Part shown: one piece after another, positions 16,297 through 53,050 of the stretch
Position numbering within the stretch: position 1 is the stretch's first letter
Layout of the letters: each line of letters opens with the position of its first letter
Made by a program: the position numbers and the translations under genes
Source: Tetragenococcus halophilus subsp. halophilus DSM 20339
Lineage (GTDB): Bacteria > Bacillota > Bacilli > Lactobacillales > Enterococcaceae
NCBI RefSeq assembly: GCF_003841405.1
Contig: NZ_PXYA01000001.1
Coordinates: forward strand, 744,001 to 808,000
DNA: 64,000 nt
Reading direction: 5' to 3'
Notes under the pieces: generated by a model
Seen by the model: the letters and a program-made list of their open reading frames with translations, nothing else
Database searches by the model: none
Told to the model about the DNA's origin: nothing

Positions 16297-16584
16297 TCAG
16301 GGAGCAAAAGTAGTTTTTTCTCCCTGTCTTGTTAATCATAGGGAATGAGTCTTCAATTTAACCCCCATCTTTTCATCCTCAGGGAGTAAATTTAAAATTC
16401 TATCCCTATCTTTAACATTTTTCTTTCTATTTTTTAAAAAAAACCTCGTTTTCCAGCAATTTCAGGGAGTCTTTTAGCAATTCATTCCCTGTCTTTGCAT
16501 TCTCAGGGAACAAATGTAATTTTTACTCCCTATCTTTCTAATCATAGGGAGTAGATTTCTATTTTTCTCTCTGATCTTTTGTAA
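16297..16584. repeat. Tandem 41-bp hairpin array, family 1 (six units plus one degenerate)
   Basis: Units start at 16297, 16338, 16379, 16462, 16503 and 16544, each 41 bp; the 42-bp gap at 16420-16461 looks like a decayed seventh unit. The common form begins TCAGGGAG, has CTCCCT starting at about unit position 24, and ends near TCTTTNTAATC. In each unit AGGGA(G/A) and (C/T)TCCCT-like arms are inverted and about 14-15 bp apart, so each could fold as a hairpin. The array lies between the IIB stop and IIA start and would be part of the PTS transcript. It has no ORF and no CRISPR-like unique spacers. Confidence 0.85.
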
Positions 16585-16593
16585 CGATAGCTA

Positions 16594-16911
16594 TCATTCC
16601 ATCAAATTAAGTGCTTGTTGTAATACATTTTCACCATTCATCATTCCATAGTCAGACATATTAATGACATCCAATGGAATTCCTTTTGGTGTTAAGCGTT
16701 TTTCAAAATCACCCTTCATAAATCGTACTTGTGGGCCTAATAATAGAACATCAACTGAATTAGATTCCAATTTTTGATCCGCTTCTGAAGATGAGCAAGC
16801 AAAAATCTCAGCGTCCAATCCTTTATCATCAGCTGCTTTTTGCATTTTTGTTACTAATAAACTAGTGCTCATACCAGCTGAGCAAACTAACATAATTGTT
16901 TTTTCTGCCAT
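16594..16911 (-). CDS. PTS lactose/cellobiose-family IIB component
   Basis: The 105-residue protein has the IIB active-site loop near its N-terminus, IMLVCSAGMSTSLLVTKM, in which Cys (VCSAGMSTS) takes phosphate from IIA as a thiophosphate. The later LLGPQVRFM motif is also typical of cellobiose IIB proteins. I place the start at the ATG at 16911, eight bases after AGGAG; the GTG at 16920 that opens the longer frame overlaps that site. It is the first PTS gene behind the sigma-54 promoter at 16951-16967. Confidence 0.94.
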   Translation of the reverse strand: MAEKTIMLVCSAGMSTSLLVTKMQKAADDKGLDAEIFACSSSEADQKLESNSVDVLLLGPQVRFMKGDFEKRLTPKGIPLDVINMSDYGMMNGENVLQQALNLME

Positions 16912-16950
16912 TTTTTCCACTCCTTAATTTTTATCTTTCAACTTTATATA

Positions 16951-16967
16951 AGCAATAAACATGCCAA
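16951..16967 (-). promoter_or_regulatory. Sigma-54 (-24/-12) promoter of the PTS genes
   Basis: The minus strand reads TTGGCATGTTTATTGCT, with the invariant GG and GC exactly ten bases apart, matching TGGCAC-N5-TTGC. It lies 40 bp upstream of the IIB ATG. The adjacent regulator has the GAYTGA sigma-54 contact loop, so promoter and activator fit each other. The match is read directly; RpoN dependence is inference from known families. Confidence 0.88.
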
Positions 16968-17021
16968 TACTAACGAACGCTATTTCCTCACAAGTCAACT
17001 TTTTGACTATATAGGTAAGCG

Positions 17022-17069
17022 TTACACACTAAAGCAAAACTTTACACACTAAATTTGTGTGTAAAGTTT
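17022..17069 (-). promoter_or_regulatory. Candidate upstream activating sequence for the LevR-like regulator
   Basis: TTACACACTAAA occurs twice in direct repeat (17022-17033 and 17042-17053), 20 bp apart, about two helical turns. A 12-bp inverted repeat (17037-17048 with 17058-17069) adds an opposite copy. The group lies 55-118 bp upstream of the -12/-24 promoter, the usual place for enhancer sites, and overlaps the last codons of the regulator gene. No T-run follows the dyad, so it is not a terminator. Confidence 0.65.
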
Positions 17070-19757
17070 AAAAGGCGTATCGATTTGGTTTTTAATAAAA
17101 GCTTCAGTTAAATACGCAATCTCATCATCTGGAATTTGAATATCATAATTTTTCTCTATTGAAATAAAAGAAGTTTTTAAAATATCAGTTTCTAGACGAT
17201 ATTTCTTTTGAAAAACAGCTAAATCAGGAAATTGTCTTTGTATCCCAGCAGTCCGTAATGCTTCTATTAAAAATGCTAAATGAATGACTAAACCTGCTTC
17301 TACACTAGGTTCTAAAATAATGTGCAATTGTGTTTGTACTTGCTGAACAAGTGACTTTAGCGTTTCTACCAAAACTGCTAAAGACCCTACGTGTGTAATT
17401 GTCCCGTCAAGTGAGTTAACAATCGTATCCGCTGCAATTTCATCTTTAACGATACTTTTTAATACTTTTAGTTTTTGATCGTCAAAAACATCATAAGCGG
17501 AAAAGAAAGGAATATTTTGGTATTCAACTTCAACAGTCCCCGCAATGGCTTTTATTTCATACTCCTCTAGCAGTCCATCAATATGTTTTTTAAAAGTTTC
17601 TTTTTCAATAAACTGCATTTGTATAATTTCCACTTTTGCTTGATCAACAATTGCCGCGATACGTTCATATAATTTGGCAGCTACACCTTCACCTGTAAAA
17701 CAAGTGACCACAATCGCTTTTTTATTATCTTTATCCCCGTGTTCATCTTGGAATTGCTCACGTACAATCGTTTCAAAAGAGCTTTGAATATTTTGATAGA
17801 TGTCTTCTAAGCTTCTTCCTGCTTCTGACATCCGTAATGCTTCAATGACAATCATTGTACTGGTCATAGAAACAGCTTTTGTGCGAATGCCAGTTTCTTC
17901 ATATAGTAAAGTGGCAAACGAATTCAACGAGCCCATATCAGTCAACAATAGCAAGCCATTAGAAAACTGCGATTTGTTATCTATCACATCATTTAATAAT
18001 TTTTGATACATTTGGTTGACCACTGTGTCTAAGGGCATATCCATCGCTACCCCACTTGTTGTACCTAATAACTCTTGGGCAGCAGATAAAATACTTGAAG
18101 CCGTAGAATTTCCATGCATCAGCACAATAACCCCCACGTTGTTTTGGGGTAACTGTTCATGTTCTCCTAATTGGATAGAAAGAAACATACTGATAAAACC
18201 GATTTCATCAAAAGGAATTTCAACTTGTAATTCTTCTTCGATAGTTGTAGATAGGTCTAACGCTAGTTGAAACTCAGACTTCAAATTTTTTCTTACGCGA
18301 TTTAAATCTGGATGAACGATTACCTCTTTTTTGTGAATACGATCCAAAGTAAGTTGTAGATGCAGCGCAAAAGCAAAGCGTGCTTTTTCATTGTAGCTAC
18401 GCTCTAGTTTCTTTTCTGCGATATCATATAACTGATTAGTCAAATTCCAAATATTAGAAGCTATCATCCCTCTTTGTGTCGAAGTTTGGGTTAATTCTTT
18501 TACATAATTGGCAAAATAAGCCTCTACATCTTTTGAAACCACCTTTTCCAAATCTGTATTATCTACACCTAGCTGATTTAAAGAAGCAAGTTTTTCTTCA
18601 ATTTCTTGATACACTTCCATATTGCTATCACTATCTTGTGCGCTGCTGACTTCTTTATCTTGAGCTTCAAAGATCAAATAATCGCCTTTTCCCTCAAGAA
18701 AATGATCAAGACGTTCTGCTCTTTCTTTTATTTTAAGCATCCCTTTTTGAACTTGTAGGGGACAGTCTTTTTTACGAATAATCAGTTCATCTTGCTCATG
18801 TGTACGATAATGCAAAAATGATTTGGCACACACTATTTTTACGTCTCGCTTAATCTGTCCGATATTGGCAGGTGCATCGTATAACATAAAAGCTACAATC
18901 GCATCTTTTTCCACTTTAATCGCTCGATTTAAACGGCTGGCCTCTTGCTTAATAAAAAGAGTGATAATTTCATAACGTTCATCTAAAGAACGTTGGGCTA
19001 AATCAGGTAAGGTAATCGACATTGGAATTCTACGATTGAAAGTACCTAAAAAAGCGTCTGAAGACTCAGTTGTTGCGCCTATAATCTGCACGGAAGCTTC
19101 ATATGCTCGGCTGCTTTCACCTAAAGGACGGTATTGCCCCTTATCGATGAAACTAAATAACATTTCTTGGCCTTCTGGCGGCAAACGATGAATTTCATCT
19201 AAAAATAAAATACCACCGTCAGCCTCGGCTAGAAGCCCTTTTGTATTCGCATCAGCACCAGTATAGGCCCCTTTTTTCACACCAAAAATGTGACCAAACA
19301 ATAGCTGTGGATTTTGCGCGTAATCCGCGCAATTAAAAGATATAAAGGGGGCATCTTGTGCTAAAGCTTTAGCTTGTACCGCAAATTGATACATACATTC
19401 AGCAAACATGGTTTTTCCGGTGCCTGTCTGACCAAAAATAATCATATGAAGTCCACTAGGTGGATACAACATCGCTGCCTTGGCTTGTTGGATACTAACT
19501 TTTAAAGAAGCGTCGGCACCAACTAATCGTTCAAAATCCATTTTTATAGATTCAACTTCTGTTAAGTTGGTTGTAAGAGGATAATAAACCACAGGTCGTC
19601 CGGTTGATTTTTGAATACTTTTATTTTTTGCCAGCTCGTTTAAATAACGACTTACATTGCTACGATCGATTTGCAAGCTATCAGCGATCTGCTTAGCTGT
19701 CAGTCCGTCAGCATGTTTTTCTACAAATTGTAAAATTTCTTGTTTTCTAGGGTTCAT
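17049..19757 (-). CDS. levR: LevR/CelR-type sigma-54-dependent PTS activator
   Basis: The 902-residue protein has, in order: an N-terminal winged HTH (residues 5-45), an AAA+ domain with Walker A GQTGTGKT (109-116), the sigma-54 loop GAYTGA (163-168) and Walker B ILFLDE (183-188), a first PRD domain (about 430-540, with His in FALHLQL), an EIIA-Man-like domain (about 560-690), a segment with the VVTCFTGEGVA motif, and a second PRD (about 790-900, LVIHLAFLIEAL). This is the LevR/ManR/CelR class, which activates a PTS operon with RpoN and is tuned by HPr- and EII-dependent phosphorylation. The neighbouring PTS genes, -24/-12 promoter and repeat sites fit. The symbol marks the class, not a proven fructose role; a cellobiose-type sugar is more likely. 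Confidence 0.93.
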   Translation of the reverse strand: MNPRKQEILQFVEKHADGLTAKQIADSLQIDRSNVSRYLNELAKNKSIQKSTGRPVVYYPLTTNLTEVESIKMDFERLVGADASLKVSIQQAKAAMLYPPSGLHMIIFGQTGTGKTMFAECMYQFAVQAKALAQDAPFISFNCADYAQNPQLLFGHIFGVKKGAYTGADANTKGLLAEADGGILFLDEIHRLPPEGQEMLFSFIDKGQYRPLGESSRAYEASVQIIGATTESSDAFLGTFNRRIPMSITLPDLAQRSLDERYEIITLFIKQEASRLNRAIKVEKDAIVAFMLYDAPANIGQIKRDVKIVCAKSFLHYRTHEQDELIIRKKDCPLQVQKGMLKIKERAERLDHFLEGKGDYLIFEAQDKEVSSAQDSDSNMEVYQEIEEKLASLNQLGVDNTDLEKVVSKDVEAYFANYVKELTQTSTQRGMIASNIWNLTNQLYDIAEKKLERSYNEKARFAFALHLQLTLDRIHKKEVIVHPDLNRVRKNLKSEFQLALDLSTTIEEELQVEIPFDEIGFISMFLSIQLGEHEQLPQNNVGVIVLMHGNSTASSILSAAQELLGTTSGVAMDMPLDTVVNQMYQKLLNDVIDNKSQFSNGLLLLTDMGSLNSFATLLYEETGIRTKAVSMTSTMIVIEALRMSEAGRSLEDIYQNIQSSFETIVREQFQDEHGDKDNKKAIVVTCFTGEGVAAKLYERIAAIVDQAKVEIIQMQFIEKETFKKHIDGLLEEYEIKAIAGTVEVEYQNIPFFSAYDVFDDQKLKVLKSIVKDEIAADTIVNSLDGTITHVGSLAVLVETLKSLVQQVQTQLHIILEPSVEAGLVIHLAFLIEALRTAGIQRQFPDLAVFQKKYRLETDILKTSFISIEKNYDIQIPDDEIAYLTEAFIKNQIDTPFKLYTQI

Positions 19758-19775
19758 ACAACTCCTCCTGTATTT

Positions 19776-21008
19776 CTAACCTTTATTAGAAGAAGTCTTT
19801 TGACTTTTTTTAGTGGTTTTTTTCTTACTTTTCTTGGACTTATTCGCTTGACTCTTAGCTGTTTTCTTTTTCTTTATAGGTTGAGCTTTAGGTTTTTCTG
19901 TTGTTAACTGCCCTTCATATAAGTAGATCTCTTGTAAGGACAGTTCTAAACTTTTAGTGATTTTTTTCAACTGTGGCAAACTATCTTCTTGTACGATAGT
20001 AATGACAGCCCCTGTTTTACCCATTCGTCCAATACGTCCTGCACGGTGCAAATAACTTTCTTTAGAACTCGGAACTTCAGCATTCACGACATAATATAAA
20101 TCGGCGATATCCAGACCTCTAGAAGCAACATCTGTACTCAATAATTCCGTTAATTGCTGTTTTCGGAATTTTTCTAGTGCATCTTTACGCGACAGCTTGG
20201 ATTTATCAGAAGCTAGACTTGCTACCGGCAATTTATGATATCGTAATTTTTCTTCGGCGCTTCCTAAATCCTGCACTTCGTTAAAAAAGATCAACCCTTG
20301 AAAATCAGTTAGATGTCCCAAACTTCTCAAAGCGTCCACTTTTCTTCTTGTAGGAAAAACTAAATAATAGTGAGCAACTTGTTGATGGCTTTTATCTTCT
20401 TTACTTACATCAATAACTGGAAATTCTTGCTGAAATAACTGCTTAATCGCAGGTAAAGCTTTAGTAGCAGTCGCAGAAAAAAAGGCATATTGGCTAGTAT
20501 TGGATATGCTTTTAATCACTGTTTGCATAAAGCCCACTGCTTCTTTTTGCAATAATTGATCTGCTTCATCCAAAATAACCGTTTGAATGTTTGCTGCTTT
20601 TAATTTTTTTTCTTTTATTAATTCAACTAAACGACCGGGTGTTCCAATTAATACTTCCGGCTTTTTTTTCAATTTTTCTATTTGTCTTTTTTTATTGGCA
20701 CCGCCAATAAGGCTTTGTACTTGTAAGTTCAAATCCAAAGCCCAAGGTCTTGCAACATCTGCGACCTGAACGCCTAATTCTTGTGAGGGAGTCACAATAA
20801 GCAGTTGATTGCCATGTTTAGGCTGCAATTTTAATAGTGTCGGCCAGAGATAAGCCAAGGTCTTGCCGGTACCGGTAGGAGCGACACCCACAAGACTTTT
20901 TCCTTGATACAAAGCAGAAAAGACTTTTTCTTGTATCAAACTTGTTTGTTCAAAGCCTTCTTTTTTTATTCTTTCTTGCCAAATTTCTGGTAGAAACTGC
21001 TCTTCCAT
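19776..21008 (-). CDS. cshB: DEAD-box RNA helicase, CshB-like
   Basis: The 410-residue protein has all DEAD-box motifs: Q-motif region near FEQTSLIQ, APTGTGKT (motif I), TPGR (Ib), DEAD (II), SAT (III) and HRAGRIGRMG (VI). A lysine-rich tail of about 40 residues (KKKKTAKSQANKSKKSKKKTTKK) follows and probably binds RNA. Helicases of this size with this tail are CshB/YqfR-like in Firmicutes and act in cold-adapted translation, ribosome assembly and mRNA turnover. It is 18 bp upstream of levR on the same strand and ten bases downstream of the oxidoreductase gene, so it may be transcribed with its upstream neighbours. The cshB name is tentative. Confidence 0.9.
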   Translation of the reverse strand: MEEQFLPEIWQERIKKEGFEQTSLIQEKVFSALYQGKSLVGVAPTGTGKTLAYLWPTLLKLQPKHGNQLLIVTPSQELGVQVADVARPWALDLNLQVQSLIGGANKKRQIEKLKKKPEVLIGTPGRLVELIKEKKLKAANIQTVILDEADQLLQKEAVGFMQTVIKSISNTSQYAFFSATATKALPAIKQLFQQEFPVIDVSKEDKSHQQVAHYYLVFPTRRKVDALRSLGHLTDFQGLIFFNEVQDLGSAEEKLRYHKLPVASLASDKSKLSRKDALEKFRKQQLTELLSTDVASRGLDIADLYYVVNAEVPSSKESYLHRAGRIGRMGKTGAVITIVQEDSLPQLKKITKSLELSLQEIYLYEGQLTTEKPKAQPIKKKKTAKSQANKSKKSKKKTTKKSQKTSSNKG

Positions 21009-21017
21009 ATTTTTCCT

Positions 21018-22025
21018 CTATTCTTGATCGGCATCGAAAACGACACCTGCTTGTTTTCTTAATTCGTATAATATTTGATTTACATTGCGCGCCAATTCTA
21101 CCCACTCTTCGTATCTTTCTCCATAAGCCTCATTATCAGGATTTTGTATAATTTCAGCAAAATCTCTTGCCTCTTCTATCATCGGATTTTCTTTAGCAGA
21201 AACTTCGATCTCAAGTGGCGCACCATCATCTGTATGCTTATATAGACGTGCTTGATTGATCGAATTTACTGCATCTAACCAAAGCGTACCATCGTCAAAA
21301 TAAATCTCGGAAGCTAAATGGGCTTCTCCGATTTTACCATGTTGCAAGCACACATCAAAGTTCTCATAACGTAAAATGATCATACCCAGACCATCGACTC
21401 CTGTTTGAATTTTTCGGGCAAAATGATGAACTTCCTTAGGCATGCCAAACCAGCCTAATGCCGCATAAACTAGATAAACGCCTAAATCCGCTAACGAACC
21501 AGCCGAAAAATGTGGTGAGAAAATATTAGGTTCTTTTCCTTCTAATACTAAGTCGTAACGAGAAGAATATTTCATATAGCTAAAATTAGCCCCGATAATG
21601 TGATTAGGCGTAGGCAAGAATTCTTTCATCTTTTTGAAACTTTCTTCGTGTATATTCCGAGCTGCTTCAAAAAAGAACACCTGATTTTCATTGGCTTGTT
21701 TAATAATTGTCGCCATTTCTTTAGGGTTTGAAAAAGCGGGTTTTTCTACAATAATATTTTTACCTGCTGCAATTGCTTGTTGCGCTTGTACAAAGTGCAA
21801 ACTATTAGGAGAAGCGATATAGATGGTGTCCATTTCTTCTAAGGCAAAAAAGTCTGTCAAGTCATCTTTGTATTCTCTAGTACCCGCATACTCTTTTCCG
21901 AATTCCTGAGCTTTTTCTAAAGTTCTAGAATAAACAGCAGTCAACTCATATTCTCCAGTTGCAAGAGCCGCTTGTACAAATTGGTGAGTAATCCAGTTGG
22001 TGCCTATAATTCCTAAATGAATCAT
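21018..22025 (-). CDS. Gfo/Idh/MocA-family NAD(P)-dependent oxidoreductase
   Basis: I start at the ATG at 22025 (MIHLGIIGTNWIT), which has AAGGA six bases upstream; the longer frame to 22064 overlaps the sfsA gene and lacks a ribosome site. The 335-residue protein has a Rossmann motif at the N-terminus (GIIGTNWITHQF) and the EKP motif (NIIVEKPAFSNPKEM) of the family near residue 95. Members oxidise or reduce sugar, inositol or trihydroxy substrates with NAD(P). The substrate cannot be read from the sequence. It lies 22 bp after sfsA and just before the helicase, suggesting one transcript. Confidence 0.9.
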   Translation of the reverse strand: MIHLGIIGTNWITHQFVQAALATGEYELTAVYSRTLEKAQEFGKEYAGTREYKDDLTDFFALEEMDTIYIASPNSLHFVQAQQAIAAGKNIIVEKPAFSNPKEMATIIKQANENQVFFFEAARNIHEESFKKMKEFLPTPNHIIGANFSYMKYSSRYDLVLEGKEPNIFSPHFSAGSLADLGVYLVYAALGWFGMPKEVHHFARKIQTGVDGLGMIILRYENFDVCLQHGKIGEAHLASEIYFDDGTLWLDAVNSINQARLYKHTDDGAPLEIEVSAKENPMIEEARDFAEIIQNPDNEAYGERYEEWVELARNVNQILYELRKQAGVVFDADQE

Positions 22026-22047
22026 CGTCATTCCTTCTTTCTTTATT

Positions 22048-22779
22048 TTATTCAAGTGGGTCACAAAAACTAGCTTCTAAATCAAATGGCACTTCTTTAG
22101 TGATTTCAAGCTGTGTAGCATTTACATGACAAGCGTAGCAAAGAAATTGTACGCCTTTTTTTACAGCTGTATCTGCAGTATCTTTTAACTCTGGTTGCAT
22201 CTTTTCATGTATGGTTGCCACATCAATATTAGCAAACTGTGCAATAAAAACAACATAACAATGCTCACCTTTTTCCTGTGCATGTATTAATTCGCGAACA
22301 TGCTTTAAGCCACGTGCAGTTGGTGCATCAGGAAATGCGCCGACACGTTTATTTTCTAGTGTCATCCCTTTTACTTCAATCAGTCCTTTTTCTTTTTTAT
22401 CTGTTTCAAAATAAAAATCAATACGGGACTGTCCATATTTTACTTCTCTTTTAACTAAGTTAATATTTCCATTTAAACCTGGTAAAACAATGGTCTGATT
22501 GAGCAAAGCACTAAATACTACTTCGTTGGGTGCACTACTATCTATATTATACCAGTGATCTTGCTTTTTTACTGCTATTAAATCATAAGCCGTCTTTCTT
22601 TTTGTACTTGGCAAAAAATTTAAAGCAACCACTGCTTCAGGCAACAATACTTCCTTGCCACGTCCTGTATTTTTTACATGCACATCAACAATTTCATTTG
22701 ATTCTTTTAAACGACAGCTCGCAACAAAACGATTTTTCCGTTCCAAAAAATAAGCGAGTTGAATATATTCATATTTCAT
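22048..22779 (-). CDS. sfsA: SfsA-family protein
   Basis: The 243-residue protein aligns by eye with the SfsA (sugar fermentation stimulation) family: FLERKNRFVASCRL near the N-terminus, GRGKEVLLPEA, then a nuclease-like core DFYFETDKKEKGLIEVKGMTLE and FPDAPTARGLKHVRELI. SfsA was named for effects on maltose metabolism in E. coli, and its fold resembles PD-(D/E)XK nucleases; DNA binding is reported for the family but its real role is unclear. The length is typical (about 230-245). It is the first gene of a probable sfsA-oxidoreductase-helicase series. Confidence 0.92.
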   Translation of the reverse strand: MKYEYIQLAYFLERKNRFVASCRLKESNEIVDVHVKNTGRGKEVLLPEAVVALNFLPSTKRKTAYDLIAVKKQDHWYNIDSSAPNEVVFSALLNQTIVLPGLNGNINLVKREVKYGQSRIDFYFETDKKEKGLIEVKGMTLENKRVGAFPDAPTARGLKHVRELIHAQEKGEHCYVVFIAQFANIDVATIHEKMQPELKDTADTAVKKGVQFLCYACHVNATQLEITKEVPFDLEASFCDPLE

Positions 22780-22868
22780 TTCATCACCTGCTAGTAAAAG
22801 TTTACCATATCTTCAAACTTTCTACGTAAAAATTTCTAAGCAAAATCATCTAATATTTAATAAAAATT

Positions 22869-22877
22869 TGTTATAAT
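22869..22877 (+). promoter_or_regulatory. Extended -10 promoter of the small membrane protein gene
   Basis: TGTTATAAT is a full extended -10 box (TG-N-TATAAT), 35 bp before the ATG at 22912. No good -35 hexamer is visible, as is common when the extended box is present. Confidence 0.6.
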
Positions 22878-22911
22878 GAATTTAGAAAGAAAAAGAAAGA
22901 AGGGGATCGAT

Positions 22912-23052
22912 ATGTTAGCAACTATTTTATCTTTACTATCTGTTGCCGGACTCAGTGGAATTTTAACTGCTTTTGCCTTTCTTAGCTATCAATTACTACA
23001 AGAAGAAGCTTTAGAAAAAGCACCCGTTAGACACAATGAACATGATTTGTGA
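22912..23052 (+). CDS. Small single-span membrane protein, 46 aa
   Basis: This short gene has an extended -10 promoter, an AAGGGG ribosome site before its ATG and its own terminator at 23051-23083, so it is very likely real. The 46-residue product starts MLATILSLLSVAGLSGIL and has one membrane span (about residues 2-27), followed by a polar tail (LQEEALEKAPVRHNEHDL). I do not recognise a family. It sits alone between sfsA (divergent) and dacA (same strand). Small membrane proteins of this type often modulate a transporter, kinase or cell-wall enzyme, but no partner can be named. Confidence 0.75.
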   Translation: MLATILSLLSVAGLSGILTAFAFLSYQLLQEEALEKAPVRHNEHDL

Positions 23053-23083
23053 GCTTAAAGTAAATACTTTAAGCTCTTTTTTT
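23051..23083 (+). terminator. Terminator of the 46-aa gene
   Basis: GAGCTTAAAG (23051-23060) pairs perfectly with CTTTAAGCTC (23067-23076) and ends in TTTTTTT. The stop codon TGA overlaps the left arm. Confidence 0.9.
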
Positions 23084-23145
23084 AATTGAATCTTCCCTTA
23101 ACTTTTGGTAGAATTCATTTTGATTAAACTAAAGGAGATTCATTC

Positions 23146-24438
23146 ATGAATAAGAAACTTTTTATTCCCTTTGTTATGGGAATTATTTTTTTACTTTTTT
23201 CATCAATTTTTACTGCCAATGTTGCGGCCGAAGATTTAGATATTCGAGCCAAAGCAGCAATTTCAGTCGATGCTGACACGGGTAAGATTTTTTATGAACA
23301 AAATAGTGACAAAGCTATGGGAATCGCTTCTACCACAAAATTGATTAGCTTATATCTGGTAGAAGATGCAATTCAAAATGGCGAGCTTTCTTGGGACGAT
23401 GAAGTAGCAATTTCAGACGATGTAGCTGAATTAAGTGAAAACCTCGAACTTTCTAATGTTCCTTTGAGCCAGGATGAGCATTATACAGTACAGGACTTAT
23501 TTGAAGCTGCTGTTATTGAGTCAGCCAATGCCGCTACGATTGCTTTAGCAGAAAAAGTAGCTGGCTCAGAAGAAAAATTTGTTGAACAAATGCGTCAACA
23601 AGTCGAAGATTGGGGTATTATTGATGCTAAAATCGTTAATAGTACAGGGCTTTCCAATGAGTTTTTAGGTGACAATATTTACCCGGGAACTAGCAAGAAA
23701 GATGAAAATGAGTTATCAGCACGAGATTTAGCCACTGTTGCTCGAAATTTATTACAAGATTTTCCGGATATTTTAGAGGTTAGTAAAATCCCTGAAAAAG
23801 AATTTGGTCAGGGAACTTCTACTCCTTTTGATATGGAAAATTTCAATAAAATGCTGCCAGGCTTACTGGCGGAAAAAGACGGCGTAGATGGATTAAAGAC
23901 GGGGACAACCGATCTAGCTGGTGCTTGTTTTGTAGGAACAATCGAAAAGGATGGACAACGAATCATTACTGTGGTTTTAAATGCAATAGATCATGATGAT
24001 ATCGAAAATGAATCTGCTCGTTTTGATGAAACCAGCAAGCTAATGGACTATACATTTGACCATTGGAAACAAGAAACATTATTGACTGATAATGATCGAA
24101 TTCCTGATTTAGCTTCAGTTGATGTTCCTCAAGGAAAGAAACAAACACTGCCAGTAGCCGTACAAGATGAGATCAAACTATGGTTGCCTAGCGATAAAAC
24201 AACTGAGGATGTTTCCTATCAAAGTTCTCTAAACAACAACGAAGTACAGGCGCCGGTAAAAGCAGGAACTGATATTGGTAATGTGCAAGCTCAGGTTGAA
24301 GATGACGATTTAGGTTATTTGAATAATGAAGAAGCTAAAAAAAGCTCCAACAGTGCTATTATCACAACTGAAGGAACAGAAAAAGCCAATATTTTTACCA
24401 CAACTTGGCGAAATATCAAAAACTTTTTTAATAATTAA
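23146..24438 (+). CDS. dacA: D-alanyl-D-alanine carboxypeptidase (DacA, low-mass PBP)
   Basis: The 430-residue precursor has a signal peptide (residues 1-28, ending NVAAE). The penicillin-binding active site shows SxxK at Ser62-TTK65, SxN at S126-A-N128 and KTG at K251TG. It removes the terminal D-Ala from peptidoglycan pentapeptides and so limits cross-linking. A PBP5-type C-terminal beta domain follows, and an amphipathic tail (TTTWRNIKNFFNN) anchors it to the outer face of the membrane. AAGGAG lies seven bases before the ATG. It is monocistronic. The protein is unusually acidic, in keeping with a salt-adapted cell surface, though that reading is inference. Confidence 0.95.
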   Translation: MNKKLFIPFVMGIIFLLFSSIFTANVAAEDLDIRAKAAISVDADTGKIFYEQNSDKAMGIASTTKLISLYLVEDAIQNGELSWDDEVAISDDVAELSENLELSNVPLSQDEHYTVQDLFEAAVIESANAATIALAEKVAGSEEKFVEQMRQQVEDWGIIDAKIVNSTGLSNEFLGDNIYPGTSKKDENELSARDLATVARNLLQDFPDILEVSKIPEKEFGQGTSTPFDMENFNKMLPGLLAEKDGVDGLKTGTTDLAGACFVGTIEKDGQRIITVVLNAIDHDDIENESARFDETSKLMDYTFDHWKQETLLTDNDRIPDLASVDVPQGKKQTLPVAVQDEIKLWLPSDKTTEDVSYQSSLNNNEVQAPVKAGTDIGNVQAQVEDDDLGYLNNEEAKKSSNSAIITTEGTEKANIFTTTWRNIKNFFNN

Positions 24439-24447
24439 TCATTGAAT

Positions 24448-24482
24448 TGAGCGGCCTATTACTAGAGGTCGTTCATTTTTTT
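24448..24482 (+). terminator. Terminator of dacA
   Basis: TGAGCGGCCT (24448-24457) and AGGTCGTTCA (24466-24475) pair with two G-U steps, followed by TTTTTTT. It starts ten bases after the dacA stop. Confidence 0.75.
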
Positions 24483-24488
24483 ATGAAT

Positions 24489-26334: not shown

Positions 26335-26347
26335 TTTATACTTTACT

Positions 26348-26671
26348 ATTGGAGCTTACTTTGGTGAAGTTGCCTCCAATCTGCAAATTATTGGTGGCAA
26401 CTTCCTCGATATCCCTCCAATCTGCGAGTTATTGGGGGCAACTTCCTCGATGTCCCTCCAATCCACGAGTTATTGGTGGCAACTTTTTCGATGTCCCTCC
26501 AATCTGCGAGTTATTGGTGGTAACTTTCTCAATGTCCCTCCAATCCGCGAATTATTGGTGGTAACTTTCTCGATGTCCCTCCAATCCGCGAATTATTGGG
26601 AGCAAGTTTGCAGAATTGCCTCCAATCTTTTCTATATTGGTGACAAGTTGGTTAGAGTTGCCCCCAATAAA
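26348..26671. repeat. Tandem 41-bp hairpin array, family 2 (eight units)
   Basis: Units start at 26348 (42 bp), 26390, 26431, 26472, 26513, 26554, 26595 and 26636. Most are 41 bp with the form ATTGGTGGCAACTT...TCCCTCCAATCNGCGANTT. The arms ATTGGNGG (unit positions 1-8) and CCTCCAAT (25-32) are inverted, so each unit can fold as a hairpin with a 16-base loop. Central units are 90 percent or more alike; outer ones are more degenerate. It lies between convergent genes (25132-26334 plus and 26713-27216 minus). Plus-strand ORFs across it arise only because 41 is not a multiple of three, and I reject them. Confidence 0.92.
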
Positions 26672-44791: not shown

Positions 44792-45667
44792 CTAAAACAC
44801 TTGTACGCCCTCTCGTTCCAAAGATAGCTGTTCGATCTGCGCTGATCCTGCCATTTGCTCCAATTCAAATGTTATCAGATCTGCTTTTTCTTCACTTGCC
44901 AAAATTAAAACTGTAGGTCCTGCCCCACTAAGAAATGCCGCATAACCTTCATTTTGCTTTACAATTTGGCGAATGGTTGTTAAATGCGGAACAAATTTTT
45001 CGCGGTAGGCTTCATGCCATTGATCTTGTTCCATCATTTTCCCTGTAAGTATTAGATCACCATTTAAAATAGCTGCAATCATAACGTTTGCGATCGAACT
45101 AGCTTTTACTGCCTCAGCAAACGGAATATTTTCAGGTAATACACTACGACTTTCTTTAGTCAATACTTGCGAATTTGGGATATAGGCGATAATACGGCAT
45201 TCAGGAAAATAATGTTTTACATAGTGAATGATGGGCTGATCCTCTCTAAAAAAGTGGCTAGCCACAACAAAGTCACCACAAATCGCTGGCGCACAGTTAT
45301 CAGGGTGGCCTTCAATAGAAGTAGCGATTTCTATTTTTTGTCGTTCAGTCAAATTTAAATTTTCTAAACGATTGGCTAGTTCAATCCCTGCTACGATCAC
45401 CGAAGAACTACTCCCTAAACCTCGAGCAATTGGAATGGTACTTGTCATTTTTAAATGATGCGGTTTTATTGTTGGTGCAACTTTTTCAGCTATTTGTATC
45501 AAGAGGTTTTGTTCATCTTTTGGAATTTCCGGACCCAGCTCATGGTCCACCCTCCACTTACTGTCTTCTTCAATAACCTCAATAGTTAAATAGCTTGATA
45601 AAGCAATACCGCAAGAATCAAAACCTGGACCTAGATTAGCACTTGTAGCTGGTACACGGATTTTCAT
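44792..45667 (-). CDS. thrB: Homoserine kinase
   Basis: The 291-residue GHMP kinase has VPATSANLGPGFDSCGIAL at the start, the ATP-binding loop TIPIARGLGSSSSVIVAGI and the third motif AAFLSGAGPTVLIL near the end. It phosphorylates homoserine on the way to threonine. It follows hom by three bases, so the pair is one operon. thrC is not in the window, although it is usually adjacent, so the final threonine synthase step must be encoded elsewhere. Confidence 0.97.
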   Translation of the reverse strand: MKIRVPATSANLGPGFDSCGIALSSYLTIEVIEEDSKWRVDHELGPEIPKDEQNLLIQIAEKVAPTIKPHHLKMTSTIPIARGLGSSSSVIVAGIELANRLENLNLTERQKIEIATSIEGHPDNCAPAICGDFVVASHFFREDQPIIHYVKHYFPECRIIAYIPNSQVLTKESRSVLPENIPFAEAVKASSIANVMIAAILNGDLILTGKMMEQDQWHEAYREKFVPHLTTIRQIVKQNEGYAAFLSGAGPTVLILASEEKADLITFELEQMAGSAQIEQLSLEREGVQVF

Positions 45668-45670
45668 TTC

Positions 45671-46924
45671 TTAATCCTCCCAAACACTTAATATTTGTTT
45701 TACATGGCTGATTTCTTGCAGTTTATTTATCAAGTCATGTTTTTGTTGCACTGTTAATTTATTGCTGATAAAAGCTGCCTCGCTATTTTCTTGTTGCTTT
45801 AAAGAAATGGGTCTTATGTGCTGTTTTTCTAAAAAGGTTGTTAAATCTATAGCGCAATCAGTAATTAAAAAGTAATAGTTCATTAATCCTTCTTTATGAA
45901 GCTTACACCTTGGCAAATTCGAGGGACTCATTTGAAGTGCCTGCTGTTTGTTGTTCAGATTTTTCGCAATAGTCAAAATATCTGTAAGGACACTTTCGGC
46001 AGTTGGTGATGCGCCAGCGCCTGGACCATAAAGCAAGGAATGACCCATCATTTTACTTTCAATAAATACGCCGTTCATTTCGTTTTTTACAAAAGCAAAC
46101 GGGTGTGTTTGCGGAACAAGAACAGGCTCTACCGCAGCATAAGTCCCCTCGTCTACTTCTCGAGCATAAGCAAGCAATTTGATTTGATAACCAAAATCGT
46201 GAGCGTAAAAATGATCAACTTGAGTAATTTCACCGATCCCTTTAACACTTAGATCATCTAATACTAAATCTTGATTAAGCGCTAAGCGTACTAAAATGAT
46301 TAGTTTATACGCAGCATCCCAACCATCTACATCGTTTGTTGGGTCTGATTCAGCAAAACCAGAAACTTGAGCAGATTCTAAAGCTTCTTCATATGTAAGA
46401 CCTGCTTCATTCATTTGCGTCAGTATAAAATTACTCGTCCCATTTAAAATCCCTTGTATAGCAGTAATTTCATCTGCCATAAAACTTGTATTTAAATTAT
46501 GCAAAATAGGGATACCACCGGCAACACTTGCTTCATAAAGCAAGGAAACATTATTGGCTTTAGCAGTTGCCGTAAGTTCATTACCAAAACGCGCAATTAA
46601 ATCTTTGTTAGCTGTCACTACATGTTTTTTTCTTTGTAATGCCAGAGTAATCCATTCTTTAGCCGGGTGGATTCCGCCAATCAACTCCACCACAATGTCA
46701 ATTGTCGGATCAACAAGGATATCTTCAACTTCAGTGGTTAACGTTAACTGATATTTTTGTGCTAGACCTTGCTTTTTTTCTTTTGAACGTACCAATACTT
46801 TAGCAATCGAAAAGCTTAAATCCGTCTGCTGCTTTATTTTTTCTTCTGCTGCAATTAAATTTTTAACAAGACCATTGGCCACAACACCTAGGCCTAAGAC
46901 AGCGATATTTACTTGTTTTTTCAT
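45671..46924 (-). CDS. hom: Homoserine dehydrogenase
   Basis: The 417-residue protein has an NAD(P)-binding N-terminus (NIAVLGLGVVANGLVKNLI), the catalytic region with GIPILHNLNTSFMADEITAIQGILNGTSNFILTQMNE and QVSGFAESDPTNDVDGWDAAYKLIIL, and a C-terminal ACT-like domain (ITDCAIDLTTFLEK). It reduces aspartate semialdehyde to homoserine, and the ACT domain likely senses threonine. It is upstream of thrB. No riboswitch or T-box is seen in the 165 bp upstream. Confidence 0.96.
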   Translation of the reverse strand: MKKQVNIAVLGLGVVANGLVKNLIAAEEKIKQQTDLSFSIAKVLVRSKEKKQGLAQKYQLTLTTEVEDILVDPTIDIVVELIGGIHPAKEWITLALQRKKHVVTANKDLIARFGNELTATAKANNVSLLYEASVAGGIPILHNLNTSFMADEITAIQGILNGTSNFILTQMNEAGLTYEEALESAQVSGFAESDPTNDVDGWDAAYKLIILVRLALNQDLVLDDLSVKGIGEITQVDHFYAHDFGYQIKLLAYAREVDEGTYAAVEPVLVPQTHPFAFVKNEMNGVFIESKMMGHSLLYGPGAGASPTAESVLTDILTIAKNLNNKQQALQMSPSNLPRCKLHKEGLMNYYFLITDCAIDLTTFLEKQHIRPISLKQQENSEAAFISNKLTVQQKHDLINKLQEISHVKQILSVWED

Positions 46925-47057
46925 AGCTGCTCCTTTTAAAATATCGTTTATCTTTAATCATTCATAGAATAAAAAGTTTAAAAAAGAATAACTTTGAGAT
47001 TAAAAGTACTTTCATAAATTTCTAATTTACTTGTCTAAGCATAACAAAATTTCCGCA

Positions 47058-47086
47058 TAAAAAAAGAACTTTCTGTCTGAAAGTCC
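47058..47086 (-). terminator. Terminator of the ArsR-family gene
   Basis: GAACTTTC (47066-47073) pairs with GAAAGTCC (47079-47086) around a short loop, and a seven-T run follows on the minus strand. It lies four bases below the arsR stop. Confidence 0.8.
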
Positions 47087-47089
47087 TTT

Positions 47090-47383
47090 CTAACGGTGAT
47101 GAACGTGTTTGAAAGTTTGTTCCAAAATATCTAAAACATGGGCATCATCGACACTATATAAAACAGCTTTCCCTTGTCTTCTGGTTTTTACGACACGATT
47201 ATCGCGCAACAATCTTAATTGATGAGAAACAGCTGACTGTTCCATACTTACTTCATTGGCAATCGTCGTAACATTTTTTTCGCCTTCTTTTACTGCCAGT
47301 ACGATTTTCAAACGAGTCATATCACTTAATACTTTAAAGATTTGGCTAACACGTTCGATATCTTCGATGCTTGTCTTTTCCAT
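47090..47383 (-). CDS. ArsR/SmtB-family metal-responsive repressor (CzrA-like)
   Basis: The 97-residue protein has the ArsR winged HTH (IANEVSMEQSAVSHQLRLLRDNRVVKTRRQGKAVLYSV). At its C-terminus the alpha-5 zinc site is complete: VDDAHVLDILEQTFKHVHH, with Asp and His two apart, then His after eleven and fourteen residues, the exact CzrA/SmtB ligand spacing. It should release its DNA when zinc or cobalt rises. No efflux pump (CzcD-type) adjoins it here, so its target gene is elsewhere or has been lost. GAGGAGG precedes the ATG. Confidence 0.93.
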   Translation of the reverse strand: MEKTSIEDIERVSQIFKVLSDMTRLKIVLAVKEGEKNVTTIANEVSMEQSAVSHQLRLLRDNRVVKTRRQGKAVLYSVDDAHVLDILEQTFKHVHHR

Positions 47384-47412
47384 AGCGTCCTCCTCTTATC
47401 GTTTTCATATGG

Positions 47413-47450
47413 AAAAACTAGGGCAAAAACCACTATAAATTTTGCCCTAG
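47413..47450 (-). terminator. Terminator of the phosphoglucomutase gene
   Basis: CTAGGGCAAAA (47418-47428) pairs with TTTTGCCCTAG (47440-47450), and TTTTTCC follows on the minus strand. It lies 48 bp below the pgm stop and just upstream of the arsR gene. Confidence 0.87.
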
Positions 47451-47497
47451 ATGTTTTTCATTTGTTAACTTTAGCAAGAAACGCTTTTATTATACAA

Positions 47498-49225
47498 CTA
47501 ATTTCCAGTAATTTCATTGATAGCAGCTTGTAACAGTTCAATTTTTTGTTGTGCGCGTTCATCAGAATCAGCTTTTACACCTATATAGAATTTAATTTTA
47601 GGTTCAGTACCTGAAGGGCGAATCGCAAGCCAGCTATCATCTTCTAAGGTATATTTCAACACATCAGAAGGCGGTGTGCTTAACTTTTCTGTAGCCCCTG
47701 ACGCATTTTTACGGATTAATTGTTTGAAGTCTTCTGTCTGCACTACTTTAGTTCCCGCAAATTCAGTGGGCGTTTGTTCTCTAAAGGATTTCATTAAGGA
47801 AGTAATCTTAGCTGAACCTTCTTGACCAGACATCGTCAACGAGATCGTTTTTTCTGCATAATAACCATATTCGGCAAAAATTTCTTGTAAGGCATCATAC
47901 AATGTTTTGCCTTGTTTTTTATAAGCGGCAGCCACTTCCGCTAATAAAACAAGCGCTTGAATCGCATCTTTATCGCGTACAAATGGTTGAACTAAAAAGC
48001 CATAACTTTCTTCAAAGCCAAAGATAAAACTGTGACTATGTTCTGCTTCAAATTCTTTAATTTTTTCCGCGATAAATTTAAATCCTGTTAAAACATTAAC
48101 CATTGGTACGTCATAGCTTTGGGCAATAGTAGTAGCTAATTCGCTAGAAACAATTGATTTTAAGATGACGGCATTTTCCGGTAAAGCATTAGTCTTTTTC
48201 CGAGCTTCTAAAATATAACGAATAAGTAAAGCACCGATTTGATTTCCGCTTAATACTTTATAGTCACCATTAGGCATACGCACAGCAGCTCCTAAACGGT
48301 CTGCGTCAGGATCTGTCGCAATTAATAAATCAGCATTTTCTTTTTGGCCTAAACGCATAGAATACTCAAAAGCTGAACTTTCTTCTGGATTCGGTGATTT
48401 CACTGTGGAAAAGTCCGGATCTGCCACTGCTTGTTCTGGTTCTACAATAAACTCTTTAAAGCCTGCTTGACGTAAAGCTTTCTCACCTAACATTTTGCCT
48501 GTGCCATGTAGCGGTGTAAAAATTAATTTTAGCTGATCATCCATTTGGTCGATCACATCTTGATCAATCGTCACAGCTTGTAATTCAGACAAATAGGCTT
48601 GGTCAATATCTTCACCTATCATGGTAATAAGGCCTTGTTCTTTGGCTGCTTTTTCTGCCATCACAGGAACCGTTAGTGGATTATCAACTTCACGAATCAA
48701 AGTTGTTACCATATCTGCATCTACTGGTGGCATTTGTCCACCATCTTCGCCATACACCTTATAACCATTATATTCTGGCGGGTTATGAGAAGCTGTGATC
48801 ATGATACCCGTGAATGTTTTTAAGTAACGCACTGCAAAGGATAGTTCCGGTGTAGGTCTTAAGCTTTCAAATACATAGGATGGAATATTATTATAAGCCA
48901 ATGTTTTGGCAGCTTCCATGGCAAATTCTTGCGAAAGATGCCTTGAGTCATAAGCAATAGCAACGCCTCTTCTAGCAACATCAAACCCTTGTTTTATCAT
49001 AAAACGCGCCAAACCTTCTGTTGCCTGACGTACAGTATAAATATTCATACGATTAATGCCTGGTCCTAAAATTCCACGCATACCCGCAGTACCAAATTCA
49101 AGGGGAGCGTAAAAGGCATCTTCTAACGCCTCTTGCTTTCCCTTTAACTCATCTAATTGTGTTTTTAAATGGTCATCCAAAGCGTCATCATTTGTCCACT
49201 GTTCATAAATTTCCTTCCAGGACAT
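47498..49225 (-). CDS. pgcA: Alpha-phosphoglucomutase (PgcA-type)
   Basis: The 575-residue protein is a phosphohexomutase. The phosphoserine loop is GIMITASHNPPEYNGYKVYG (about residues 139-158), the metal loop is DPDADRLGA (about 313), the sugar-binding loop is FGFEESYGFL and the C-terminal phosphate loop is IRPSGTEPKIKFY. It converts glucose 1-phosphate and glucose 6-phosphate for UDP-glucose, glycolipid and cell-wall polymer synthesis. It appears monocistronic, with a terminator downstream and two palindromic blocks upstream. Confidence 0.95.
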   Translation of the reverse strand: MSWKEIYEQWTNDDALDDHLKTQLDELKGKQEALEDAFYAPLEFGTAGMRGILGPGINRMNIYTVRQATEGLARFMIKQGFDVARRGVAIAYDSRHLSQEFAMEAAKTLAYNNIPSYVFESLRPTPELSFAVRYLKTFTGIMITASHNPPEYNGYKVYGEDGGQMPPVDADMVTTLIREVDNPLTVPVMAEKAAKEQGLITMIGEDIDQAYLSELQAVTIDQDVIDQMDDQLKLIFTPLHGTGKMLGEKALRQAGFKEFIVEPEQAVADPDFSTVKSPNPEESSAFEYSMRLGQKENADLLIATDPDADRLGAAVRMPNGDYKVLSGNQIGALLIRYILEARKKTNALPENAVILKSIVSSELATTIAQSYDVPMVNVLTGFKFIAEKIKEFEAEHSHSFIFGFEESYGFLVQPFVRDKDAIQALVLLAEVAAAYKKQGKTLYDALQEIFAEYGYYAEKTISLTMSGQEGSAKITSLMKSFREQTPTEFAGTKVVQTEDFKQLIRKNASGATEKLSTPPSDVLKYTLEDDSWLAIRPSGTEPKIKFYIGVKADSDERAQQKIELLQAAINEITGN

Positions 49226-49275
49226 AACAAACCACCTCTTTATCTATTTTGTTAATTTTATTATATCACAGTCTG

Positions 49276-49340
49276 TTATTCATTCGACTGCTGAATGAAC
49301 AATTTTCTTTTAGTTTATTATTCGTTCAACGACTAAATAA
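49276..49340. promoter_or_regulatory. Two palindromic blocks upstream of pgcA, 42 bp apart
   Basis: The first block (49276-49302) holds TTCATTC...GAATGAA with seven bases between. A related block begins with TTATTCGTTC at 49318, exactly 42 bp downstream of TTATTCATTC. They lie between pgcA and the bgl gene terminator. They may be operators, or a worn pair of the 41-bp hairpin repeats seen elsewhere in the window. Confidence 0.4.
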
Positions 49341-49380
49341 AAAAATTACTTCTACAAGATAACTTATAGAAGTAATTTTT
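49338..49380 (-). terminator. Terminator of the 6-phospho-beta-glucosidase gene
   Basis: AAAATTACTTCTA (49342-49354) pairs perfectly with TAGAAGTAATTTT (49367-49379). The A-run side gives a T-run on the minus strand. It lies 16 bp below the stop codon. Confidence 0.85.
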
Positions 49381-49395
49381 ATTATTATGAAATTC

Positions 49396-51748
<2,353 letters not shown>

Positions 51749-51857
51749 TTTCCACCTTCTTTCTCAATTTATTTACAAGACTATTATCTATATTAGCATC
51801 TCCTTTAGCAAGAAAATATTGAATCTTCAATTATTGTTTACAGATAAAATAAAAGTA

Positions 51858-51887
51858 TCGACAAAATTTGTAAATATCGTTTACAAT
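51858..51887 (+). promoter_or_regulatory. rpiR promoter with operator-like palindrome
   Basis: TCGACA (51858-51863) and TACAAT (51882-51887) are 18 bp apart, as a -35/-10 pair. Between and over them lies TTGTAAATATCGTTTACAA (51868-51886), a 7-5-7 perfect palindrome. A dimeric RpiR protein bound there would block its own promoter; a similar TTGTTTACA lies 35 bp upstream on the side of the bgl gene. Confidence 0.6.
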
Positions 51888-51919
51888 ATATATCAAAACT
51901 ATGTAAATGGGGTGGTTCT

Positions 51920-52837
51920 GTGTTATTAACAGAAAAGATCGAAGAAGTTTCTTTTTCTCCAGCAGAAAGAGAAGTTGTTCGTTATATTCTTACAGACTAT
52001 ACAAGAATTGAAAATGCTACAGTAAAAGAGCTTGCCGAAAAAAATTACGTGCATCCCTCAACTTTGATTCGGATTGCTAAAAAAATGGGCTTTCACGGTT
52101 GGAACGATTTCAAAGACGCTTTTTTAAAAGAACAAGACTATTTACACAATCATTTTGTACAAACAGACGCTAACCTACCCTTTGCGGAAAATGATAGTAT
52201 TTTAACAATCGCGCAAAAGATTGCTTCTTTAGAACAAGAAACGATTTCTGACACACTTTCTTTACTTGAACATCAGCAGCTGCAAAAAGCTACCGAACTA
52301 TTATATCAGTCAAAACAAATTAAAATTTTTACTTCGAACGCGAATCTTCTGATTTCACAAGATTTTGCCTTAAAAATGCGTCGAATTAAAAAGCAAACAA
52401 GCGCGGCCGAAACAATTGGCGAGCATGTCTATGAAGCTTATAGTACAGACGAAAATACGTGCGTCCTAATGATTTCGTATACTGGCGAAAACGAGATGCT
52501 TAAACGAATTTTGCCTATTTTAAAACAACAAGGAGCAACAATTATTGTTTTAACAGGGATTGGTGATAATACTTTGGCAAAACTTTCTGATTGCCATTTG
52601 CGTTTAGCTACACGTGAAAAACTTTATTCAAAGATTGGTAGTTATACCACCAGCACTTCAATTTCTTATTTATTAGATATTTTATACAGTACGGTTTTTG
52701 CTAAAAATTATCAGAAAAATATGGCGCATTTAATCGCTATTGGAGAAGAGTACGATAATCGCACTAGCACTTCACCAGTCATGCATGAAAGTAACCCTCC
52801 GAAAATTCAAGTGACTGATGCAATTATTCCAAATTAA
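51920..52837 (+). CDS. RpiR/MurR-family regulator with SIS domain
   Basis: The 305-residue protein has an RpiR-type HTH at the N-terminus (TVKELAEKNYVHPSTLIRIAKKMGFHGWNDFKDAFLKE) and a SIS sugar-phosphate isomerase-like domain (about residues 105-240, IKIFTSNANLLISQDFALKMRR and VLMISYTGENEMLKRILPIL). It senses a sugar phosphate and controls sugar-use genes. It starts with GTG at 51920, with GGGGTGG five bases before. It is divergent from the phosphatase pseudogene and the 6-phospho-beta-glucosidase, so these are the probable targets. Confidence 0.93.
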   Translation: MLLTEKIEEVSFSPAEREVVRYILTDYTRIENATVKELAEKNYVHPSTLIRIAKKMGFHGWNDFKDAFLKEQDYLHNHFVQTDANLPFAENDSILTIAQKIASLEQETISDTLSLLEHQQLQKATELLYQSKQIKIFTSNANLLISQDFALKMRRIKKQTSAAETIGEHVYEAYSTDENTCVLMISYTGENEMLKRILPILKQQGATIIVLTGIGDNTLAKLSDCHLRLATREKLYSKIGSYTTSTSISYLLDILYSTVFAKNYQKNMAHLIAIGEEYDNRTSTSPVMHESNPPKIQVTDAIIPN

Positions 52838-52840
52838 CTT

Positions 52841-52889
52841 TTTAAAAAATCTAGAACTTCTAAGAAAGACTTGCTCTAGATTTTTTAAA
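52841..52889 (+). terminator. Terminator of the RpiR gene
   Basis: TTTAAAAAATCTAGA (52841-52855) pairs perfectly with TCTAGATTTTTTAAA (52875-52889). The right arm is also the start of the first repeat unit of the array at 52871-53050, so terminator and repeat are merged. Confidence 0.8.
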
Positions 52890-53050
52890 TTTTAGACCTA
52901 TGTCATGTTTTCAACTCTAGTTTTTTTGTTTTCTTAACCTACTTATTGATTTCAGCTTTAGTTTTCCTGATTTCTTAACCTACTTTGCTTATCCAACTCT
53001 AGTTTTTTTAATTTCTTGACCTACTCTTGACTTGTAGCTCTAATTTTCCA
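52871..53050. repeat. Tandem 41-bp repeat array, family 3 (four units and a partial fifth)
   Basis: Units start at 52871, 52912, 52953, 52994 and 53035, each 41 bp. The common form is CAACTCTAGTTTTTTTGATTTCTTAACCTACT... followed by a variable ending. Arms TAGTTT and AACCTA (one central mismatch) are inverted within each unit, about 13 bp apart. The sequence is unrelated to the arrays at 16297 and 26348, but the period is the same. It lies between the convergent rpiR and yneF genes and contains no coding frame. Confidence 0.88.

What the first reader, a model, noticed from the sequence alone, without database searches (positions are those of the whole stretch)
16297..53050. Three unrelated intergenic repeat families share a 41-bp period and the same hairpin layout
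Seen directly: arrays at 16297-16584, 26348-26671 and 52871-53050 each repeat every 41 bp (one 42-bp unit in family 2, a 42-bp gap in family 1). The sequences are unrelated, but each unit carries inverted arms at similar places: AGGGAG/CTCCCT, ATTGGNGG/CCTCCAAT and TAGTTT/AACCTA, about 13-16 bp apart. Conserved period and dyad geometry with unlike sequence suggest selection on structure. 41 bp is close to four helical turns, so all arms would face one side of the DNA, or the transcript would be a chain of hairpins. I do not recognise this as BOX, RUP, REP, CRISPR or MITE.
Basis: partly seen in the sequence, partly recalled or inferred. Interest (0 to 1): 0.8.

Follow-up and report, generated by a model that had tools for sequence, protein, structure and literature searches.

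The report
Fixed-length 41-bp intergenic repeats in Tetragenococcus
A genus of salt-loving lactic acid bacteria carries about a dozen unlike families of tandem DNA repeats between its genes, and they nearly all share a repeat length of 41 bases give or take one, which points to an unknown molecular ruler acting on the DNA.

Summary
All three arrays are real; a fourth (49260-49354, period 42) lies in the window. The genome is a Tetragenococcus. In 453 kb of it, 12 of 22 strong tandem peaks fall at lag 41 or 42 and 2 at the double period; in 1.06 Mb of other Tetragenococcus (partly chosen for holding matches) 29 of 51 fall at 40-42; in 1.44 Mb of other Lactobacillales 0 of 14 do. The arrays form about a dozen families with almost no sequence similarity between them.

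The structural reading is only partly right. Dyads are common but not universal, and the family-3 dyad is not above chance. In the best-sampled family the one variable arm position does not covary (39 of 136 complementary, 49.6 expected), and mismatches show no RNA signature. An RNA hairpin chain is therefore unlikely.

Arrays change unit number fast (about 8 versus 3 units with 99% identical flanking genes), are replaced by other families in the same spacer, and one looks imported from another species. Best reading: DNA-level, genus-specific dispersed minisatellites with an unexplained 41-bp ruler. Seven literature searches listed no description.

The parts
16294..16579 (.). Family-1 array, 7 units of about 41 bp, AGGGAG..CTCCCT type, filling the spacer between two co-directional minus-strand ORFs
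   Evidence: absent by eye at this spacer in G001, G002, G003, G006, G008, about two units in G004 and G005, nearly identical 7-unit array in G007
26347..26668 (+). Family-2 array, 7.9 units of 41 bp (one of 42), ATTGGNGG/CCNCCAAT type, between convergent genes, ending at a predicted bidirectional terminator
   Evidence: strand is that of the family reference used for orientation counts
49260..49354 (+).
52864..53047 (+). Family-3 array, about 4-5 units of 41 bp (CTCTAGTTTT..TTAACCTA type), between convergent genes; the alignment begins at 52826, but its first unit is poor
63209..63285 (+). Two degenerate family-2-like units 41 bp apart (read by eye, no test run)

Best explanation
The arrays are genus-specific dispersed minisatellites that evolve, and if they act then act, as DNA and not as chains of RNA hairpins. 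About a dozen unlike repeat families are scattered through spacers, more often than expected between convergent genes. Arrays expand and shrink, are homogenised inside, are replaced by other families at the same spacer, and can pass between species. Shown here: a unit of 40-42 bp whatever the sequence; restriction to the genus in the samples; fast unit-number change; family replacement at one site; weak or absent arm covariation. Inferred: the unit length is set by a DNA ruler, most likely a replication-linked duplication step with a fixed reach, or a DNA-wrapping or dyad-binding protein whose repeat is about four helical turns. The partial dyads would make units prone to hairpin-assisted slippage or to recognition by that protein. 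Which of the two rulers it is cannot be told from sequence.
For: Period: (12 of 22 own peaks at 41-42; 29 of 51 in other Tetragenococcus at 40-42; 0 of 14 in controls). Unlike families: between-group similarity 16.7 against 15.9 for shuffles. DNA not RNA: G-T 82, A-C 100 mismatches; family-2 position 6 complementary in 39 of 136, 49.6 expected; a predicted terminator stands between stop codon and array at 31 of 54 facing 3' ends. Turnover: 7.9 units in G000 and about 3 in G002 with flanking genes 99.3% and 99.1% identical; different families in one spacer in different species. Placement: convergent 14 of 38 arrays against 116 of 609 spacers, p 0.012. Lateral exchange: family-1 array 95% identical to G007 between genes 81% and 83% identical, inside DNA otherwise 91-100% identical to G001 and G002, which lack it.
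Against: No ruler has been identified. Families 2 and 3 have a strongly non-random orientation, which a neutral minisatellite does not require and which could mean a transcript-linked or polar function; family-2 arrays always have a gene 3' end on the same side (21 of 21 loci). 23 of 54 facing 3' ends show no predicted terminator before the array, so part of the arrays may be transcribed. Compensatory changes exceed chance threefold within arrays, and one spacer shows arms changed on both sides between species, which suggests some constraint on the dyads.
Confidence: 0.5

Rival explanations
1. Functional RNA: each array is transcribed as a chain of hairpins in a 3' or intercistronic untranslated region and stabilises, attenuates or terminates the transcript.
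For: Dyads are commoner than in shuffled units as a class; family-2 orientation follows transcription in 14 of 14 co-directional loci; some arrays start 9-14 bp after a stop codon with no predicted terminator between; compensatory cells 32 against 9.5 expected.
Against: G-T mismatches are not favoured over A-C (82 vs 100); family-2 arms do not covary at the variable position; a terminator precedes the array at 31 of 54 facing 3' ends; a constant 41-nt repeat is not needed for hairpins whose stems and loops differ; no Rfam family at gathering score in the window except one tRNA.
Confidence: 0.12
2. Polar chromosome markers or protein-binding arrays: each family is a set of oriented sites for a DNA-binding protein (compare KOPS, Chi or nucleoid-protein sites, recalled), and the 41-bp spacing is that protein's lattice.
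For: Family-2 reference strand on the C-rich strand in 29 of 33 places with assigned skew, family 3 in 18 of 20, including 9 of 10 convergent or divergent spacers; family-2 half-site conserved as ATTGGNGG with a free sixth base (partly imposed by the filter of at most one mismatch per arm).
Against: Other families are mixed in orientation; the purine-rich strand is on the leading side in 36 of 42 arrays but also in 246 of 332 array-free spacers, difference not significant (p 0.13); unlike sequences would need several proteins or one that reads only shape.
Confidence: 0.13
3. Common descent: all families come from one ancestral 41-bp array whose sequence has diverged past recognition while the unit length was inherited.
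For: Restriction to one genus; short arm motifs shared at one spacer in different species, TGTCCT/AGGACA.
Against: Between-group similarity is nearly that of shuffles; a unit that had changed most of its bases should have drifted further in length than 40-42 bp (inference).
Confidence: 0.1
4. REP-like mobile palindromes spread by a tyrosine (Y1) transposase, clustering head to tail.
For: Short, often palindromic, extragenic, dispersed, clustered; single dyad copies seem to exist, as in G004 at the family-2 spacer (read by eye).
Against: Y1 transposases occur in 70 of 103 family genomes and are missing from G007, which has arrays; REP tags GTAG or CGTC are no commoner in units than in shuffles (5 and 1 of 42; 8.6 and 4.5 expected).
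Confidence: 0.07

Closest known systems
Bacterial intergenic minisatellites / VNTRs, such as mycobacterial MIRU (features recalled; search listed no MIRU paper)
   Same: Short tandem units in spacers at many loci, variable unit number, consistent orientation at least for families 2 and 3
   Different: Here about a dozen unlike sequence families share one unit length of 41 bp give or take one, in one genus
REP / BIME elements, GTAG and CGTC super-families (PMC3733652: abstract and passages seen)
   Same: Small, often palindromic, extragenic, clustered in tandem
   Different: No GTAG or CGTC tag above chance, no co-distribution with Y1 transposases, fixed period with unlike sequences
EFAR palindromic repeats of Enterococcus faecalis (only the citation was seen; the paper is not held)
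   Same: Palindromic intergenic repeats in the same bacterial family
   Different: Could not be compared; recalled as much longer modular elements. No lag 40-42 peak at 65% identity in the Enterococcaceae controls
CRISPR repeats
   Same: Families of unlike sequence and similar length, partial dyads
   Different: No spacers: units are directly head to tail
Eukaryotic nucleosome-length satellites (recalled)
   Same: Unit length kept while sequence turns over, often with dyads; a works-like analogy only
   Different: Bacterial, short, dispersed through spacers; no ruler protein known

Membership tests
Bacterial intergenic minisatellite / VNTR | Head-to-tail units in non-coding spacers at many loci | tested here: met
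   43 candidate arrays in 932 kb of Tetragenococcus, one of them coding
Bacterial intergenic minisatellite / VNTR | Unit number differs between close relatives | tested here: met
   7.9 vs about 3 units with 99% identical flanking genes; 2.3, 5.0 and 5.8 units at another spacer
REP / BIME | GTAG or CGTC tag at one end of the palindrome | tested here: not met
   5 and 1 of 42 unit consensuses hold the tag anywhere; shuffles give 8.6 and 4.5
REP / BIME | Associated Y1 (RAYT) transposase | tested here: not met
   PF01797 in 70 of 103 family genomes, none in G007, which has arrays; RAYT subfamily itself not separated from IS200-type
REP / BIME | Palindromic unit | tested here: inconclusive
   Raised as a class, 9 of 43 arrays individually
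CRISPR | Repeats separated by unique spacers | tested here: not met
   Units abut with no spacer between
Known RNA family | Match to an Rfam model | tested here: not met
   Only a tRNA at gathering score in the window
MIRU | Sequence homology to mycobacterial units | not tested
   No MIRU sequence was in hand
EFAR | Sequence homology to E. faecalis EFAR modules | not tested
   Paper not held; no EFAR sequence in hand. Family 2 matched none of 96 non-Tetragenococcus Enterococcaceae genomes

The most novel reading that the evidence does not exclude
Tetragenococcus has a satellite-DNA system in which a dedicated cellular ruler (a DNA-wrapping protein lattice, or a duplicating enzyme with a 41-bp reach) fixes the unit length while the sequence is free to turn over: a bacterial counterpart of nucleosome-length satellites.
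Probability: 0.25. Interest if true: 0.85.

Novelty: new variant of a known kind. Interest (0 to 1): 0.6.

Why it matters
Tandem repeats that arise by plain slippage should differ in unit length from family to family. A genus in which unlike families keep the same 41-bp unit implies a ruler, and the repeat lengths are a direct readout of it. These are cultivable food bacteria, so the ruler can be sought by comparing strains and deleting candidate genes. The arrays would also serve as variable-number typing markers.

Tried and rejected
RNA hairpin chain: set aside as the main reading on mismatch, covariation and terminator evidence.

REP/RAYT: Y1 transposase not specific to the genus; tags not enriched.

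Plasmid or phage origin: no match of family 2 in plasmids or phages, nor of family 1 in plasmids. Families other than 1 and 2 were not searched there.

Helical phasing: the pooled A/T spectrum gave z 4.7 at harmonic 4, but one value per family gave p 0.018, with harmonic 7 at p 0.011; not used as evidence.

Purine polarity: 36 of 42 arrays have the purine-rich strand on the leading side, but so do 246 of 332 array-free spacers (Fisher p 0.13); dropped as array-specific.

Orientation beyond families 2 and 3 is mixed (family 1 from the strands).

The first family-2 arm table counted both strands and wrong registers; replaced. Candidate L094:18224 is coding: it is among the 43, and an intended exclusion failed, so it is in their counts; it was dropped. 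One search dropped both L094 arrays. L044:6189 is weak and was kept. At the looser cut of 60% identity the 699-kb control set shows 4 places at lag 42 and none at 40 or 41.

Literature: searches listed no paper describing these repeats. PMC3733652 and PMC4666352 were seen as abstract starts and passages; all others as search listings only.

Full report
WHERE. A window protein is 92% identical to one of Tetragenococcus halophilus. The species of the window genome (G000, 2.6 Mb, 5 contigs) is not named.

OBSERVATION. The three arrays exist at the stated places; alignment gives 7.0, 7.9 and 5.4 units, mostly 41 bp apart. A fourth array, 49260-49354, has 42-bp units. I scanned for local self-similarity at each lag from 15 to 120. 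In 452,882 bp of the own genome (20 evenly spaced stretches plus the window) there are 22 peaks at 65% identity over 60 bp: 9 at lag 41, 3 at 42, 2 at the double period, 8 elsewhere (16, 22, 24, 75, 87, 92, 93, 93). Counted per lag, there are 10 at 41, 4 at 42, and at most one at any other lag from 25 to 59. At 60% identity, 19 candidate arrays lie in this sample, about one per 24 kb.

GENERALITY. In 1,062,432 bp of G001-G008 and L019-L022, 29 of 51 peaks lie at 40-42 and 8 more at 80-84. This set is not unbiased: some contigs and orthologous regions were chosen because they held matches, and a few stretches overlap. Stretches of G003 and G005 taken at regular steps agree: 41-bp or double-period peaks are 3 of 7 and 3 of 4. 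In 73 control stretches (1,440,538 bp) of other Enterococcaceae and other Lactobacillales, 0 of 14 peaks lie at 39-43. At 60% identity, 699 kb of these controls show 4 places at lag 42 and none at 40 or 41. G006, the most divergent Tetragenococcus by two proteins (71% and 80%), gave one weak lag-41 peak in 88,803 bp at 63% and no family-2 match. Family-2 DNA matched 8 of 105 family genomes, all Tetragenococcus. Family-1 DNA matched 12 of 198 genomes of the order: three Tetragenococcus, and nine others with matches of 26-47 bp at E of 1e-4 or weaker.

FAMILIES. 43 candidate arrays were aligned (one coding). Single-linkage clustering gave 7 groups of two or more and 9 singletons, with mean similarity between groups 16.7 against 15.9 for shuffles. 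The singletons include the coding array, a weak one, and two arrays from one orthologous spacer, and single linkage may merge unlike units, so 'about a dozen' is a rough count. Unit length goes with family: 42 for the GAATGAACAAT and TTGCTGACC arrays, 40 for two CTAG arrays, 41 for most.

DYADS. Units resemble their own reverse complement more than shuffles do on average (z 1.45; 9 of 43 below p 0.05; combined p 6e-9 ignoring relatedness). Family 3 of the finding shows no dyad. Within arrays, 32 paired changes keep complementarity (about 9.5 expected), 21 do not (about 19 expected), and 325 single changes break or alter a pair. In 136 oriented family-2 dyads from 34 loci, seven arm positions hardly vary (partly because at most one mismatch per arm was allowed) and the free position is complementary in 39, 49.6 expected if independent. 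Several loop positions are conserved above 0.8 as well, so conservation does not single out the stem. One between-species case looks compensatory: at the spacer matching window 46925-47089 (no array here), G004 and G005 have TGTCCTGA..TCAG.ACA-type units and G008 has TGTCCTAT..ATAGGACA (read by eye).

RNA OR DNA. Mismatched arm cells are 82 G-T and 100 A-C. Of 54 gene 3' ends facing an array, 31 have a predicted terminator before the array and 22 have one within or after it; the groups overlap (home-made predictor and ORF caller). Of 38 arrays with a clear spacer class, 19 are co-directional, 14 convergent and 5 divergent, against 373, 116 and 120 spacers; the convergent excess has p 0.012, the divergent deficit p 0.40.

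ORIENTATION. The family-2 reference strand lies on the C-rich (taken as lagging) strand in 29 of 33 places with assigned skew, 10 more unassigned; without the reference array 28 of 32. Some places are orthologues. In 21 family-2 loci the gene on one fixed side always points into the array, and the 14 co-directional loci all agree. Family 3 gives 18 of 20, or 17 of 19 without the reference, including 9 of 10 convergent or divergent spacers where genes give no direction (five loci are short and most skews local). Other families are mixed. Since the purine-rich strand follows the leading strand in ordinary spacers too, this may reflect a general strand bias. That the G-rich strand is leading is recalled.

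DYNAMICS. At the family-2 spacer G000 has 7.9 units, G002 about 3 (flanking genes 99.3% and 99.1% identical), G004 one dyad, G003 about ten units, G008 an unlike 40-41 bp family, G006 none (small numbers read by eye). At the family-3 spacer G004 has the same family (88%), T. solitarius an unlike 41-bp array (its other flank lies off the contig), and L019, L020 and L022 no array. The family-1 array is 95.1% identical to that of G007 over 284 bp without gaps, while the genes on its two sides are 81.0% and 83.0% identical; G001 and G002, otherwise nearest, lack it. Import of this allele by recombination from a G007-like lineage is the simplest reading. The family-3 array of G004 is not unusual in this way: its flanking genes are 91.4% and 80.1%. 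Units at array ends tend to be more diverged than those in the middle (by eye).

MECHANISM. Shown: unit length, unlike sequences, one genus, fast turnover, exchange. Not shown: what fixes the length. Slippage without a ruler should give many unit lengths. A requirement for helical phase alone should also allow about 31 or 52 bp, where the Tetragenococcus samples show none. I favour a DNA ruler tied to replication or to a binding protein, at 0.5.

KNOWN KINDS. It works most like dispersed variable-number minisatellites, with some features of REP/BIME repeats, but fails the tag and transposase tests for REP. No description was found; most subscription papers, the EFAR paper among them, are not in that library.

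Noticed in passing
L049:13057, L053:1773, L054:254, L058:1019, L153:13869; L166:17536 in another genus: A second repeat class with period 87-93 bp (CGCTCGCCCTAGTACTGTTC..GAATCGTAGTGATTCG), G+C-richer, in G000 and G008; a similar 90-bp repeat occurs in G065, a different Enterococcaceae genus.
   Followed up: no
L079:14092, L082:10444, L150:2256, L150:8292, L022:8510: A 114-bp repeat class in G003, G004 and the L022 MAG, in part containing units like the TTATGTGCTTA and TATTGAATAA families.
   Followed up: no
L060 (G000 contig C5, 8,882 bp) near 5629: 22-bp tandem repeats on a small contig, possibly plasmid iterons (the plasmid reading is a guess).
   Followed up: no
window 15700-16620: Local dips in identity to G001 and G002 with higher identity to G005 or G007, suggesting mosaic import around the family-1 array.
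   Followed up: partly
window 1599-1631 and 7500-7532: The same short tandem repeat lies inside two ORFs of equal length (453 aa, 1434-2795 and 7335-8696), suggesting a duplicated gene or two copies of an insertion sequence.
   Followed up: no
L183 (G005), about 1.5 kb from the family-2 spacer: A family-2 array with period 42 lies beside unrelated DNA not matching the window at this spacer, perhaps an insertion sequence.
   Followed up: no
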